The translations under genes and the position numbers were made by a program. From a virus, in IMG/VR virus record IMGVR_UViG_3300009506_000082, positions 1 to 41,209 of that record: DNA of 41,209 bases; one strand, given 5' to 3'. Below are positions 10,149 through 41,209 of the stretch, piece by piece; the first letter of the stretch is position 1; the number at the start of each line of letters is the position of its first letter. The notes beneath the pieces are model-generated. The model made no database searches, had not been told where the DNA came from, and saw only the letters and a list, made by a program, of their open reading frames with translations.

Positions 10149-10958
10149 ATGTCCGAAGAACTTGGAATAAAACAAGACGAGACTAAAGAGGAAGTAAAAG
10201 AAGAAATCAAAGAGGAAGTTAAAGAAGAATCACCTAAAATTGACAAGGTGAAAGAGCTTGAATTGGAGAATGCAAGGCTCAAGGGATTGGTTGAGGGCCG
10301 TTCCCAGAGTACTCCGCAACCAGTTCAAACGGTTGAATCTGAACAGGACAAATATCAAAAGACCAAAAGTACGGTTCTGGCAGATGCCCAATCACTTACC
10401 ACAGAAGAATTTGAGGAACGCTATAAGATGAGCAAGGCCGAAGCGAAACTCCAGTTCACAAATTATGAACTTGAGCAAGATAGAGCCAAGACTCTTGAGA
10501 GTATGGCTATCCTGAGGGCTGAAAATCAGATAGCAAAAAAATATGGAGAAAAATATTCCAAATATCAAGAACAAATTGATTCAGCGATTAAGGATTTGGC
10601 ACCGTCAGTTCGCCAGAATCCGCAGAAATTGGCTGAATATATTGAAATTGCACTACGTTCTTATATGTATGACGACAAAGAAGATAAGCCGACTCCGACT
10701 CCGAAGAAAAAAGAAGGTGCTGAAATGAATAGGAAGATTGTTGATAGCGGATTTGAAAAACCAAATGCCGTTTCTGATGAGATAAAAACACCATCCAAAA
10801 AATCGGATGAAATTCCTGACGAATACAAGCCCCTAGCAACGGCATTTGGCCTAACTTCTGAGAAGGAACGTCAAAAATTTAAAGAACCGCAGGTCGATGT
10901 GGCCTACGGAAATAACAAATGGCTGACAAGGAATGGCGTTGAAACAATCAAACCTTGA
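10149..10958 (+). CDS. Putative scaffolding protein
   Basis: I start at the ATG with AAAGGAG at ideal spacing; an upstream in-frame ATG at 10107 lies inside the terminator hairpin. The 269-residue product is very rich in Glu and Lys, with an acidic N-terminus (KEEVKEEIKEEVKEE), a central coiled-coil region and a Pro/Lys-rich C-terminal part. This composition and the place directly upstream of the capsid gene fit a head scaffold, which templates the prohead and is then released. Confidence 0.7.
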   Translation: MSEELGIKQDETKEEVKEEIKEEVKEESPKIDKVKELELENARLKGLVEGRSQSTPQPVQTVESEQDKYQKTKSTVLADAQSLTTEEFEERYKMSKAEAKLQFTNYELEQDRAKTLESMAILRAENQIAKKYGEKYSKYQEQIDSAIKDLAPSVRQNPQKLAEYIEIALRSYMYDDKEDKPTPTPKKKEGAEMNRKIVDSGFEKPNAVSDEIKTPSKKSDEIPDEYKPLATAFGLTSEKERQKFKEPQVDVAYGNNKWLTRNGVETIKP

Positions 10959-37563: not shown

Positions 37564-37777
37564 CTCTGCGATCCTTATTAATATGAGACATTAAAACTTC
37601 TTTAACCATTGGTAGCGGAATATCAAATTGTTGCAATTCAAATGTTTCGTCGTGCGCCGAATCCGAATATTGCGTTTTACAAATCCTACATTTGTTCCGT
37701 CTGTTTACTGTCGGCTTCTCGCAATTAGGACAGAAACAGAGCCAGCTCGGATATTGTTTATTTGGCTTGCTTGGCAT
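37526..37777 (-). CDS. Small zinc-ribbon protein (83 aa)
   Basis: CPNCEKP and CRICKTQ (about residues 16-36) make one zinc ribbon. A charged helix ends the protein. Overlaps with both neighbours (20 and 38 nt) show a compact operon. Confidence 0.6.
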   Translation of the reverse strand: MPSKPNKQYPSWLCFCPNCEKPTVNRRNKCRICKTQYSDSAHDETFELQQFDIPLPMVKEVLMSHINKDRRDEIEKREKNNRE

Positions 37778-38321
37778 TAATTTGTTCCCAGGACTTGATT
37801 ACATTGCCACCTCCATATCGTTTTATATGTATCTTCCTGAACTCGTAAATAGAAACCATTGGATTTGCTTCGTGTGAGTCATTGTGCCTCCAATATCTTT
37901 CGTTCCATCTGGAAACAAAATCAGAGCGGGAATTACACCCATCCAATTTTATTTGCTTCAAACTCAAATCCTTAATTCTGCATCTATTTATTTTTACTAT
38001 CTGTAAATAAATTCTTCCTGCTTCTCTTGGCATCTGTTGTGGCGGATTCCAATTAACCCATTTATATTTCTTGTCTGCCTCATAAATGAAACCGCCTTCG
38101 TGGAAGAAATCTGGATGCCACAACTCCCTGACAAAAACAAAATTTCCATTCCAGAATCGACGTTTGGGCCAAGCCTTTCCATATCGTTCCCGAAATATAA
38201 ACGCCTGTTTCTTTCCGTCTAATATCTTAATGATATCATCTGACGGGACGATAATAGATTTCCACCAAATCTTATCTATGCTCTCTACTAATGCTGTTTG
38301 TCCACCTCTTTTTCTTTTCAT
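37758..38321 (-). CDS. Phage ASCH-domain-like protein (187 aa)
   Basis: The start (KSIIVPSDDIIKILDGKKQA) matches the ASCH opening in which a substrate-surface strand is followed by a helix ending in GxK. Later parts fit too: WNGNFVFVRELWHPD and the ending EANPMVSIYEFRKI. ASCH/PUA-like domains bind RNA or modified nucleotides. Typical phage ASCH proteins have TQTRR after the GxK; here it is AFIFRER. The start codon is preceded by AAAGGG and, 20 nt upstream, by a conserved hairpin element. Confidence 0.7.
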   Translation of the reverse strand: MKRKRGGQTALVESIDKIWWKSIIVPSDDIIKILDGKKQAFIFRERYGKAWPKRRFWNGNFVFVRELWHPDFFHEGGFIYEADKKYKWVNWNPPQQMPREAGRIYLQIVKINRCRIKDLSLKQIKLDGCNSRSDFVSRWNERYWRHNDSHEANPMVSIYEFRKIHIKRYGGGNVIKSWEQINAKQAK

Positions 38322-38341
38322 TTCAATTTCCCTTTAATCGG

Positions 38342-38403
38342 GCCGGATGGTCTGACTCTTTTTATTTAAAGACAGTACCCCCATATAGGGAGTAGCATCC
38401 GGC
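38342..38403 (-). promoter_or_regulatory. Leader hairpin element, copy E1
   Basis: The outer 8-bp stem is GCCGGATG/CATCCGGC. Inner hairpins are TACxCCC/GGGxGTA (around ATATA) and TCTTT/AAAGA, giving a three-way-junction shape of 62 nt. It ends 20 nt before the ASCH-like gene start. No T tract follows on the minus strand, so it is not a simple terminator. Confidence 0.55.
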
Positions 38404-38412
38404 TTAAATTGC

Positions 38413-38491
38413 GCTGGGCCTTGAGTTTTCCATCTCCTCTTGTTATGGCTTCCCTCAGGAGAAGCTATGATGTCGGTTTGTCTGGCCCAGC
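38413..38491 (-). promoter_or_regulatory. Leader hairpin element, copy E2 (variant stem)
   Basis: The outer 8-bp stem is GCTGGGCC/GGCCCAGC. The inner hairpin is ATGGCTTC/GAAGCTAT (one G-U pair). The flank GCTTAAATT is shared with E1. 79 nt, immediately upstream of E1 in the same gap. The remaining bases of this gap (to 38560) hold nothing else recognisable. Confidence 0.5.
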
Positions 38492-38560
38492 TTAAATTCA
38501 TTTGTCCTCCATTTTTCTTTTCATGTTTATAGTTTATAGTTTACAGTAAACTATATGCCC

Positions 38561-39007
38561 TCATTCTTCCTCATCTTTAAAATTTTGATTCCAGAACCAA
38601 AGGAGCCAATAAGTAGAAGTATTGGGATCGTTCCTTGGAAGTGGACGTATAAAATGGGTAGTAGCGTAAAGGTCAATAACAGATTCAAACCAAGCATTCA
38701 TTTCCCGTATTTTCATTGACCGATCATCATCGTCATCACCAAATATCAAGGCAGTTAAATTTGGCGGGCCTTCGTTTGGTGGTTCCCCAAATAACCAGAA
38801 GTACCCGAATAACGGGTTAATATGCTCAAGAGTAAGAGAATGCCCGTCCCAATTCACAACGTATTTCTGTCCCGCAATTTCCACATATTCCTTTTTTGGG
38901 CTACCATCAATCGTAAAATACAACGGGTGTGGAGCAAGTGTATCTCTATTTAAACCGAGAATGTTTATTGGCAAGAAAAAGCAAATAATGAAAACTAACT
39001 TTTTCAT
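38561..39007 (-). CDS. Exported hypothetical protein (148 aa)
   Basis: A signal peptide (MKKLVFIICFFLPINILG) precedes a mixed domain with an aromatic, Pro-rich end (RPLPRNDPNTSTYWLLWFW). An acidic patch (GDDDDDRS) is central. ATGA overlap with the upstream gene. It is the only signal-peptide protein in the minus-strand unit. Function unknown. Confidence 0.6.
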   Translation of the reverse strand: MKKLVFIICFFLPINILGLNRDTLAPHPLYFTIDGSPKKEYVEIAGQKYVVNWDGHSLTLEHINPLFGYFWLFGEPPNEGPPNLTALIFGDDDDDRSMKIREMNAWFESVIDLYATTHFIRPLPRNDPNTSTYWLLWFWNQNFKDEEE

Positions 39008-39297
39008 TTTCCTTCCGTTTCTTTCAGAATTTCTTTTGCTATTAACTTCCTTTCCTTATCCCATTTGTCACCTTTAAACGGTTTATCAGAATATCTGATT
39101 ATATCTTCTAAAGCCTGTCTTAACTTCTCCACCTTCTTTTTCAACTCCTCAATCTCCCCCTGCCTGGATTCAAAGCCTTCGATGAATCCCCTGGCTCTTA
39201 GTTCTTTCCGATCTTCATTTATGGATAATTTACCGTCACAACCAATAGCAATTTCAACAATTTCCACCGCCTTTTCAATCGTCATTTTTTCGGTCAT
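39004..39297 (-). CDS. Small coiled-coil protein (97 aa)
   Basis: Residues about 45-70 form a coiled coil (GEIEELKKKVEKLRQALEDI). The N-terminal part (MTIEKAVEIVEIAIGCDGKL) is helical too. It has 4-nt overlaps with both neighbours. No family recognised. Confidence 0.6.
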   Translation of the reverse strand: MTEKMTIEKAVEIVEIAIGCDGKLSINEDRKELRARGFIEGFESRQGEIEELKKKVEKLRQALEDIIRYSDKPFKGDKWDKERKLIAKEILKETEGK

Positions 39298-39818
39298 TTC
39301 CCCTCCAAAATCTTCAACCCATTTTTAATAATCTTCTTTTGAAGTTTCTTTTTGGCATAGGCGGCATAGGCGGCGGCATAGGCGGCATAGGCGGCATCGG
39401 CGGCGGCATAGGCGGCGGCATCGGCGGCGGCATAGGCGGCGGCATCGGCGGCATCGGCGGCGGCATAGGCGGCGGCATAGGCGGCATAGGCGGCGGCATA
39501 GGCGGCGGCCTTTTTATTTTCAGTAGACGGGTTTTTTAAATATTCTTTCGCCGCTTCGATTGCTTTTCTTGGCCTATCGTCATTGGGATACTTTTTCTCG
39601 AAAATTTTAATAACTGACTCCGCCGCAAAGATGGCATACTGGATTTTCTGGGGATGATCCATAAATCGAACAATCGTCCAATTCGCCCAACCAAAATGAT
39701 CCTCTTTCATGAGCAAATTAATAACATCAACCAAGTCGGTTTTCTTTTTCTCTTTGAACCAGTCAATACCCGATTTACACGCTTTTTCTTTTTCCAGCCA
39801 TTCAACTGTTATTTTCAT
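39294..39818 (-). CDS. Ala/Tyr-repeat protein, putative-immunity-protein-like (174 aa)
   Basis: The first 105 residues look folded (WLEKEKACKSGIDWFKEKKK, HFGWANWTIVRFMDHPQKIQ). The family signature RPRKAIEAAKEYLKNPS is followed by about 53 residues of AAY/AAD triplets (AAYAAAYAAYAAAY) and a basic tail (KKKLQKKIIKNGLKI). The same architecture occurs in proteins often annotated as putative immunity protein in phages and bacteria; the function is not established. GAGGGG ribosome site, 26 nt after leader element E3. Confidence 0.65.
   Translation of the reverse strand: MKITVEWLEKEKACKSGIDWFKEKKKTDLVDVINLLMKEDHFGWANWTIVRFMDHPQKIQYAIFAAESVIKIFEKKYPNDDRPRKAIEAAKEYLKNPSTENKKAAAYAAAYAAYAAAYAAADAADAAAYAAADAAAYAAADAAYAAYAAAYAAYAKKKLQKKIIKNGLKILEGK
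39354..39510 (-). repeat. GC-rich GCC/TAT coding tandem repeat
   Basis: About 157 bases of GGC-GGC-ATA units (GCC GCC TAT on the coding strand, with some GAT), in sharp base contrast to the A+T-rich surroundings. The unit is a multiple of three, so changes in copy number keep the frame. Confidence 0.9.
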
Positions 39819-39844
39819 TTCCCCTCCTCGCTATCCTAAATTGG

Positions 39845-39919
39845 GCCGGATGTCCAATCCTTAGCGGTTTACATCAGGTCGAACTATTGGATGTTACTTG
39901 ACCTACCCTAGCATCCGGC
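39845..39919 (-). promoter_or_regulatory. Leader hairpin element, copy E3
   Basis: The same outer stem as E1 (GCCGGATG/CATCCGGC), 75 nt overall. Inside, TCCAAT/ATTGGA and AGGTC/GACCT interleave, so a pseudoknot or two alternative folds are possible. It ends 26 nt before the Ala/Tyr-repeat gene start. It has tRNA-like length but no tRNA arms. Confidence 0.55.
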
Positions 39920-39920
39920 T

Positions 39921-40130
39921 TTATGGTTTTAAAACTCTCGGTTTACACCAGCACTTTTTCGACAACTTATGTTTTCTTGGTAAATATTCGATTGTTATTT
40001 TTATAACTCTGTTCGTTTCTGGTTGCCAGCCACGATATTTTTTATATTTAAAGTCACAGGATGTAGAAAAACTTTCTATGTAAATCTGGTGATTACCTTT
40101 TTCTGGTGGATCAATTATTATTCTTTTCAT
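39921..40130 (-). CDS. Small basic hypothetical protein (69 aa)
   Basis: A strong AGGAGG site is eight bases before the ATG. The product (begins MKRIIIDPPEKGNHQIYIES) is basic with four Cys in the second half and no clear zinc ribbon. It is preceded by leader element E4. Family unknown. Confidence 0.6.
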   Translation of the reverse strand: MKRIIIDPPEKGNHQIYIESFSTSCDFKYKKYRGWQPETNRVIKITIEYLPRKHKLSKKCWCKPRVLKP

Positions 40131-40151
40131 TTGAATCCTCCTTTAAATCGA

Positions 40152-40192
40152 GGATGGCTGTAAACCATTGTTCACTCCTTCCTAAACCATCC
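40152..40192 (-). promoter_or_regulatory. Leader hairpin element, short copy E4
   Basis: Stem GGATGG/CCATCC with flanks TTTAAATCG and CCTTTAATT, matching the GGATG ... CATCC core and flanks of E1 and E3. 41 nt, overlapping the end of the 49-aa membrane gene and lying 21 nt before the next start. Confidence 0.4.
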
Positions 40193-40322: not shown

Positions 40323-41209
40323 TTAATATTCCTTTTCAAATACTAATTCTTGGTTTGCATTACATTCTTCAACACTCGGCCAACTTAAATCTTCCTTGCT
40401 AAATTGCCATTTCCTGGCTGCCCTGCATGATTTAAGGTCAGGATGGACGGGTTCAATGTAATATGGCCTTGTCCCATCTTTAAGCTCTGGCGATTCCATT
40501 TTTAATAGACGTGGCATCAATGAAAATCTGCGATCTTTGAAATCATATAGCTCATAATGACAGCAAGTAGAAGTGTCGAACCATTTGTCTATTAACACAG
40601 TCTCGATCCGTTTCATATATTCGTCCCAACCGAGCTTTTCAGCTATTGCCCTTGAAATTTCCGAATTTTTATCGCCAATGATTTCTTCTTTGGTTAATTC
40701 ATTCGGCCGCATGATTATTTTTTCGCTAACTCTAGTGCCATTCCAAAACCAGTATTTTTCACCGGACGGCCATTCGACGGCGGGGCCAGCCGAACAATGT
40801 AATCTTCCACGTTCGTTCTTTTTTATTTTAGATGGCCTACAAACAATGACAGCCAAGTCTTTAAACAGTAAAACTTCCCAATGGCCAGACTTAATCCAAT
40901 CTCTGTATTTTTCAAATAATTCATGTTTTAATCCTATTCTCATAAAATAGTCATAAAAAGCAATCCATCCAGAATCCGAGGATGTCCATAGCGGATATTC
41001 GTAATCCCAAACGCTGGCCCCAACGCTGGCCCCAACGCTGGCCCCAACGCTGGCCCCAACGCTGTCCCTAACGCTGTCCCTAACGCTGGCCCCAACGCTG
41101 TCCCTAACGCTGTCCTTAACGCTGTCCCTAACGCTGGCCCAAACGCTGGCCCCAACGCTGGCCCCAACGCTGTCCCTAACGCTGTCCTTAACGCTGTCCC
41201 TAACGCTGT
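40323..41209 (-). CDS. DUF6745-like protein with SVxD/A repeats, 5' end outside window
   Basis: The C-terminal domain carries [39 protein letters not shown] and a late [10 protein letters not shown] segment, the pattern of DUF6745 proteins (function unknown). Translating upstream in the same frame shows no stop to the window edge: MRIGLKH at 40943 is internal and is preceded by [20 protein letters not shown] and about 16 tetrapeptides SV[R/K/G/W][D/A]. The gene therefore starts beyond 41209, and the Met at 40943 should not be taken as its start. Such N-terminal SVxD repeats are usual in this family. Confidence 0.75.
41010..41209 (-). repeat. 12-bp coding tandem repeat
   Basis: About 16.7 copies of AACGCTGgCCCc (plus strand), with variants (tCCCt, tCCTt). 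On the coding strand each unit encodes Ser-Val-x-Asp/Ala. The repeat reaches the window end, so its total length is unknown. Confidence 0.9.

What the first reader, a model, noticed from the sequence alone, without database searches (positions are those of the whole stretch)
38342..40192. Family of related hairpin leaders in the gaps of the minus-strand operon
E1 (38342-38403), E3 (39845-39919) and short E4 (40152-40192) share a GGATG ... CATCC stem core and similar flanks (TTTAAATCG-like before and TTTAATT-like after, on the plus strand). Each ends 20-26 nt before a start codon with the Shine-Dalgarno site in between. E2 (38413-38491) has a different 8-bp stem but shares the GCTTAAATT flank. 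Most other genes of the operon overlap or abut. No T tract follows, so these are not ordinary terminators. They may be cis-acting translation or mRNA-processing elements, or a mobile mini-repeat.
Basis: seen in the sequence. Interest (0 to 1): 0.72.

Follow-up and report, generated by a model that had tools for sequence, protein, structure and literature searches.

The report
Repeated hairpin leaders in phage operon
A tailed-phage contig carries two leaders with identical hairpin stems, and two looser look-alikes, in the few gaps between genes of one operon; they are probably local signals for expressing the next gene, but their function is unproven and no relative was found to carry them.

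Summary
E1 (38342-38403) and E3 (39845-39919) have identical perfect 8-bp arms (GCCGGATG/CATCCGGC), share flanking bases, and have unrelated interiors. None of 200 null genomes gave such a repeated arm. E2 is a strong second stem beside E1 with the same 5' flank. E4 is weak: its leader resembles E1's no more than many ribosome-binding sites resemble each other, and its 5' arm lies in the end of the upstream gene. All three gaps of the operon hold such stems, 20-26 nt before a start codon. I found no T tract, no promoter match in the gaps and no Rfam family. The arms are absent from three related records searched whole, from a strict scan of genome contigs, and from 19 leaders of relatives of the gene behind E3, so covariation could not be tested. 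Best reading: a small phage-specific set of start-associated leader hairpins, analogous to but not a member of the SAS/ESAS repeats of Cluster K mycobacteriophages. A recombination boundary (PeSL-like) is the main rival. Insulation of the ribosome-binding site is weakly supported at best.

The parts
38342..38403 (-). E1: leader hairpin, 8-bp stem GCCGGATG/CATCCGGC closing a predicted three-way junction; ends 20 nt before the 187-aa gene
38413..38491 (-). E2: hairpin with a different 8-bp stem GCTGGGCC/GGCCCAGC, in tandem upstream of E1, same 5' flank AATTTAAGC
39845..39919 (-). E3: leader hairpin with the same arms and adjoining bases as E1 and unrelated interior; ends 26 nt before the Imm5-like gene
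40152..40192 (-). E4: shorter hairpin GGATGG/CCATCC, doubtful family member; 5' arm overlaps the end of the upstream ORF
38322..38341 (-). leader between E1 and start codon (CCGATTAAAGGGAAATTGAA)
39819..39844 (-). leader between E3 and start codon, with GAGGAGGGG
40131..40151 (-). leader between E4 and start codon (TCGATTTAAAGGAGGATTCAA)
38334..38501 (-). open frame of 55 codons with GGAGG site, spanning E2 and most of E1; coding status ambiguous
40127..40168 (-). possible 13-codon ORF in E4 (AAGGAG before its ATG) whose stop overlaps the ATG of the 69-aa gene
   Evidence: frame f2
37758..38321 (-). gene behind E1, 187 aa, phrog_874-like, unknown function
39294..39818 (-). gene behind E3, 174 aa, Imm5-like, alanine-rich repeats
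39921..40130 (-). gene behind E4, 69 aa, no family found

Best explanation
E1 and E3, with E2 as a diverged tandem partner, are a small phage-specific set of start-associated leader hairpins. The transcript of the minus-strand operon folds into a GC-rich stem that stops just outside the stretch an initiating ribosome covers, and leaves the A/T-rich leader and Shine-Dalgarno site single-stranded. They sit where gene overlap, and so translational coupling, is broken, and mark independent entry points for the next gene. Because stem and adjoining bases are identical while interiors are unrelated, I infer that a factor (protein or RNA) reads the base of the stem by sequence, making E1 and E3 a two-gene post-transcriptional control unit. 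Shown: identical arms, flanks, spacing, position in gaps, predicted folds. Inferred: action as RNA, recognition by a factor, effect on translation or decay.
For: Identical arms and flanks at two separate gaps, against 0 of 200 null genomes. Stems in all 3 gaps of an otherwise packed operon. 20-26 nt to the start; of 52 called starts 5 have any such stem upstream, 3 of them E1, E3 and E4, and only E1 and E3 have 8 bp. By z-score, folding is better on the coding strand for E1, E2 and E4. RBS accessibility ranks 2 (E1) and 4 (E3) of 51 starts. One related contig has a GC hairpin in a gap of its minus operon, directly before ACAATTTAAGGGAGGATAAAAATG.
Against: E3 folds better on the non-coding strand, and by energy so does E2. 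The accessibility comes mostly from the leader itself: against shuffled upstream sequence E3 ranks 2, E1 21 and E4 46 of 51. No conservation in related phages, and none in the leaders of 19 relatives of the gene behind E3. Only two copies, so sequence-specific recognition rests on one comparison, and the arms could simply be a recent copy. E2 and E1 might be coding.
Confidence: 0.4

Rival explanations
1. Recombination boundaries (PeSL-like or linker-like): the repeated arms are short homologies at gene joints through which gene cassettes of this variable operon are exchanged; the interiors differ because joints were cut and rejoined there.
For: E1 and E3 are in the same orientation and bracket a cassette of three genes. 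The nearest relative, whose major head protein is 77% identical, shows no similarity to the window's minus operon by tblastx. The hairpin does not travel with its gene.
Against: Shared stretches are only 13-14 nt. A boundary role does not require a perfect hairpin, nor fixed distance to the start. No second phage with the same joints was found.
Confidence: 0.25
2. Binding sites for a DNA- or RNA-binding regulator, as proposed for ESAS repeats: the inverted arms, not the RNA fold as such, are read.
For: Arms and adjoining bases conserved exactly, interior free; position just before translation starts, as in PMC3203893 and PMC7302621 (passages).
Against: Arm spacing (46 and 59 nt) is long and unequal for a dimeric DNA site. 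No sigma-70-like promoter lies in the gaps on the minus strand. The E2 arms differ.
Confidence: 0.17
3. E2 and E1 are part of a small real gene (55 codons) and E4 of overlapping reading frames, so the stems there are by-products of coding sequence, and only E3 is a true non-coding hairpin.
For: Open frame with GGAGG four bases before its ATG, ending 12 nt before the next start. Codon score overlaps the low end of real genes. E4's 5' arm is coding.
Against: No relative by tblastn in phage records. 13% of false-frame blocks score as high. It does not explain why E1 repeats the arms of E3, which has no such frame.
Confidence: 0.1
4. mRNA-end stabilisers or RNase processing sites, in the manner of intercistronic REP hairpins, with no role in initiation.
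For: Stable GC stems between genes; predicted energies -17 to -30 kcal/mol on the coding strand.
Against: Fixed short distance to the downstream start is not expected; the stem sequence is conserved where structure alone would do.
Confidence: 0.08

Closest known systems
SAS / ESAS repeats of Cluster K mycobacteriophages and Cluster EF Microbacterium phages (PMC3203893, PMC7302621, PMC11373665; passages read)
   Same: Repeated inverted arms with a variable spacer (Cluster K) in unusually large gaps, just upstream of the ribosome-binding site of several phage genes; function unknown.
   Different: No 13-bp GGGATAGGAGCCC-type SAS (by reading the leaders); two copies instead of several to a dozen; arms 8 bp and perfect, spacer 46-59 nt instead of mostly 4-13; paired here, whereas the Cluster K authors found little support for RNA pairing; no sigma-70-like promoter found in the gaps, whereas Adephagia ESAS carry SigA-like promoters.
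PeSL elements of T4-type phages (Arbiol 2010, Comeau 2014: recalled, not held; mentioned in PMC4503421, passages read)
   Same: Stem-loops repeated at gene joints of a variable region of small genes.
   Different: No early promoter found next to the stems; shared stretches very short; no evidence of shuffling at the stems.
17-bp palindromic repeats of Cluster O mycobacteriophages (PMC4351075, passages read)
   Same: Repeated short inverted arms, many intergenic, function unknown.
   Different: There 7-bp arms with 3-bp spacer, 34 copies in Corndog, about a third inside genes, not linked to starts.
REP/BIME elements of enterobacteria (recalled)
   Same: Intercistronic palindrome; GCCGGATG resembles the REP core as I recall it.
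   Different: Two copies in one phage, 46-59 nt interior, no copies found in genome contigs by the strict pattern.

Membership tests
SAS/ESAS | conserved 13-bp start-associated sequence at the RBS (GGGATAGGAGCCC or GGGAAAGGACCCC) | tested here: not met
   By reading the leaders: CCGATTAAAGGGAAATTGAA, CCAATTTAGGATAGCGAGGAGGGGAA, TCGATTTAAAGGAGGATTCAA; none fits
SAS/ESAS | inverted repeats with variable spacer immediately upstream of the start region | tested here: met
   (8-bp arms rather than 17-bp; spacer longer)
SAS/ESAS | many copies, kept with the same gene family in related phages | tested here: not met
   two copies of the arms; 0 of 19 relatives of the gene behind E3 carry them
SAS/ESAS | SigA-like promoter within the ESAS (Adephagia) | tested here: not met
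   no minus-strand sigma-70-like site in the gaps; other promoter types not covered
PeSL | early promoter joined to the stem-loop | tested here: not met
   sigma-70 consensus only
PeSL | mediates exchange of genes between related phages | tested here: inconclusive
   the nearest relative has an unrelated minus operon; no phage with the same arms found
Intrinsic terminator | GC stem followed by a T tract | tested here: not met
   sequence; terminator-like sites not above shuffles, 7 against 5.2
REP/BIME or other host mobile mini-repeat | multiple copies in a cellular genome | tested here: inconclusive
   strict 23-base pattern, 0 stretches in genome contigs; the host is unknown and diverged copies would be missed
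Known RNA families (Rfam 15) | match above gathering score | tested here: not met
   0 matches; one sub-threshold match on the other strand, outside the elements, at E<=5
CRISPR repeat-spacer unit | full repeats flanking spacers of constant length | tested here: not met
   ends match one array's repeat only as two halves; interiors of E1 and E3 differ by 13 nt in length

The most novel reading that the evidence does not exclude
E1 and E3 are a two-gene (with E2 possibly three-copy) post-transcriptional control unit, in a phage unrelated to the actinobacteriophages in which SAS/ESAS repeats were described, in which a phage or host factor reads the base of a paired stem while the apical part is free to vary: a start-associated hairpin class distinct from SAS/ESAS, where RNA pairing was not supported.
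Probability: 0.15. Interest if true: 0.6.

Novelty: new variant of a known kind. Interest (0 to 1): 0.36.

Why it matters
Start-associated repeats have been described in actinobacteriophages for over a decade and the papers I read still call their function unclear. Another phage with start-associated inverted repeats that are predicted to pair as RNA would make the translation-control idea testable in isolation. If they are gene-joint boundaries instead, they show how small phage genes are swapped with their own start signals.

Tried and rejected
Exact and looser hairpin patterns in viral contigs: 10 stretches, 1 and 29. By inspection the 10 and the 1 are GC-rich sequence, apart from L004, a CRISPR array whose repeat, cut in half, resembles the ends of E1 and E3. 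I judged that chance: full repeats are missing and interiors differ in length. Of the 29, the near-identical leaders in L043/L048 have an 8-bp CTAGGATG/CATCCTAG stem before TGCAATTTAAAGGAG and a start; the stem filter found no repeat of it in L043 (that filter is too strict in G+C to list this stem itself), so I treat it as unproven convergence.

Leader similarity as evidence for E4: rejected after ranking all leader pairs. A motif search showed other genes with AATTAAGGAGG-like leaders and no hairpin, so the A/T-rich flank is partly the phage's general RBS style.

RBS insulation: looked good from raw accessibility, but the shuffled-upstream control supports it for E3 only, weakly (7% of 30 shuffles at least as open).

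Paralogue covariation (E2 against E1/E3: 4 of 8 pairs differ on both sides if aligned end to end, by hand) is not counted as evidence, because stems were chosen for pairing and homology of E2 rests on one flank.

Host: not found; the only genome-contig relative of the head protein is a 31% match in an Armatimonadetes MAG contig. DNA and protein searches of phage and plasmid records gave no homologue of the elements; the 187-aa protein has only remote partial relatives.

Full report
What was given. The window is a 41,209-base linear virus record with tailed-phage genes: terminase, head protein and tail fibre families. From about 36.2 kb to its end it carries a minus-strand operon of small genes, mostly of unknown function.

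The elements. The perfect inverted repeats with most G+C in the arms in the whole window are E2, E1 and E3, together with one at 10761-10849 inside a gene. E1 and E3 have the same arms. On the coding strand the shared stretches are AAGCCGGATGCTA at the 5' end and CATCCGGCCC[G/A]ATT at the 3' end. Between the arms the two interiors (46 and 59 nt) share no 11-mer beyond the one that starts in the arm. In 200 first-order Markov genomes of the same length, none had a repeated 8-bp arm pair with at least 5 G or C and a spacer of 20-80 nt; for 7-bp arms with at least 4 G or C, 31 did. E2 stands in tandem before E1, with other arms and the same 5' flank AATTTAAGC. E1 is predicted to fold as a three-way junction; coding-strand z-scores are -3.9 (E1), -3.5 (E2), -1.5 (E3) and -3.2 (E4). 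On the other strand they are -1.9, -3.2, -2.1 and -1.1, so the RNA reading is favoured for E1 and E4, hardly for E2 and not for E3.

Position. Leaving out the doubtful 55-codon frame, 11 genes of the operon make 10 junctions: 7 overlap or abut, and 3 are gaps of 239, 102 and 41 nt, all holding these stems. The stems end 20, 26 and 21 nt before the start codon. Of 52 called starts in the window, 5 have a stem of 6 or more pairs with at least 4 G or C ending 9-35 nt upstream and spanning up to about 100 nt; three are E1, E3 and E4, and only E1 and E3 reach 8 pairs.

E4 is not a clear member. Its arms are GGATGG/CCATCC, its 5' arm codes for the end of the upstream ORF, and its leader's similarity to that of E1 ranks 42 of 1275 leader pairs. 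(The E1/E3 leaders themselves rank 99 by that measure, because the 60-base leaders contain only one arm; the case for E1/E3 rests on both arms together.) E4's loop holds a possible 13-codon ORF with its own AAGGAG, ending on the start of the next gene. E2 and E1 lie in an open 55-codon frame with a GGAGG site. Its codon score is below that of all but 4% of 165 real 55-codon blocks and above that of all but 13% of 774 false-frame blocks; its coding status is open.

Relatives. Head-protein searches found five related viral contigs (77, 66, 66, 66 and 57% identity) and a distant one (30%). The arm pattern (CCGGATG, 20-60, CATCCGG) is absent from the whole records of three: the 77% relative, one of the 66% relatives and the distant one. 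In the stretches that I held of all five, no repeated-arm family comparable to E1/E3 was found; one has a repeated 7-bp arm pair, a level that 31 of 200 null genomes reach. The 77% relative has an unrelated minus operon with one GC hairpin (fold z -2.5; its longest uninterrupted Watson-Crick stem is not unusual, 214 of 300 shuffles) directly before ACAATTTAAGGGAGGATAAAAATG. I noticed it while reading that sequence by eye, so it is a selected example. For the gene behind E3, 20 viral loci were found. I looked at the leaders of 19 (L079 was left out because only 18 residues match at its edge); in 5 of the 19 the match does not reach the N-terminus, so the start is uncertain. None has the arms of E3; one (L065) has a 9-bp stem 27 nt before the start, and three others have 6-7-bp stems 14-34 nt before it. 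The genes behind E1 and E4 gave no viral relatives. A strict element pattern found nothing in genome contigs.

Mechanism. No T tract; terminator-like and promoter-like sites are at the shuffled level, and no minus-strand sigma-70-like site lies in the gaps. Raw accessibility of the ribosome-binding site is high behind E1 (rank 2) and E3 (rank 4) and ordinary behind E4 (rank 32 of 51). But when only the upstream part is shuffled, the native upstream sequence helps E3 (rank 2), not E1 (rank 21) or E4 (rank 46 of 51). So the hairpins are not clearly insulators. What remains distinctive is that the base of the stem and its adjoining bases are conserved exactly while the interior is not. I read this as recognition by sequence at the base of a paired stem next to a start site, with moderate confidence; a recombination joint is the main rival.

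Comparison with the literature. SAS/ESAS repeats (PMC3203893, PMC7302621, PMC11373665, PMC12699233: passages read) are the closest analogue: inverted repeats with a variable spacer just upstream of RBS-proximal conserved sequence in large gaps. Two defining features, the 13-bp SAS and retention with the same gene in relatives, are not met here, so I do not file these elements there. The Cluster K authors thought hairpins unlikely for ESAS. Cluster O repeats (PMC4351075, passages) are not tied to starts. PeSLs I know from memory and from passages of PMC4503421; the original papers were not held. Searches listed no paper describing these arms or this phage; that is a limited search.

Verdict. 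A real, small, phage-specific pair (probably a trio) of start-associated hairpins; function unproven.

Noticed in passing
L016:1468-2484 (minus), relative contig G001: The terminase gene of the 77% relative carries a 339-codon in-frame insertion absent from the window's terminase; Pfam finds LAGLIDADG_3 (3.5e-12) and a sub-threshold Intein_splicing match: probably an intein with a homing endonuclease domain.
   Followed up: partly
41000-41209; L016 far end (its reverse complement 1-160): Window and relative contig both break off inside short tandem repeats of a minus-strand gene (next to a DUF6745-type gene in the window), so these ends look like assembly breaks rather than genome ends.
   Followed up: no
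39357-39512: Imm5-like gene with a long alanine/tyrosine repeat (GCGGCATAG-type units); relatives of this gene are found in 20 viral contigs and in Methanosarcina virus MetMV.
   Followed up: partly
L023:2975-3100 and L025:4490-4590: Two relatives share a nested structure: outer GGGCA/TGCCC around a terminator hairpin with TTTTTTTA before TGCCC.
   Followed up: no
L043:532-593 and L048:2997-3058 (minus): Same 8-bp CTAGGATG/CATCCTAG hairpin directly before TGCAATTTAAAGGAGAAATGATATG in two viral contigs; same architecture, no other link to the window.
   Followed up: partly
38528-38555: A/T-rich repeat TATAGTTTA..TATAGTTTAC.GTAAACTATA in the same gap as E1 and E2, a possible operator.
   Followed up: no
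407-1347: Nearly 1 kb with no convincing gene near the start of the window.
   Followed up: no
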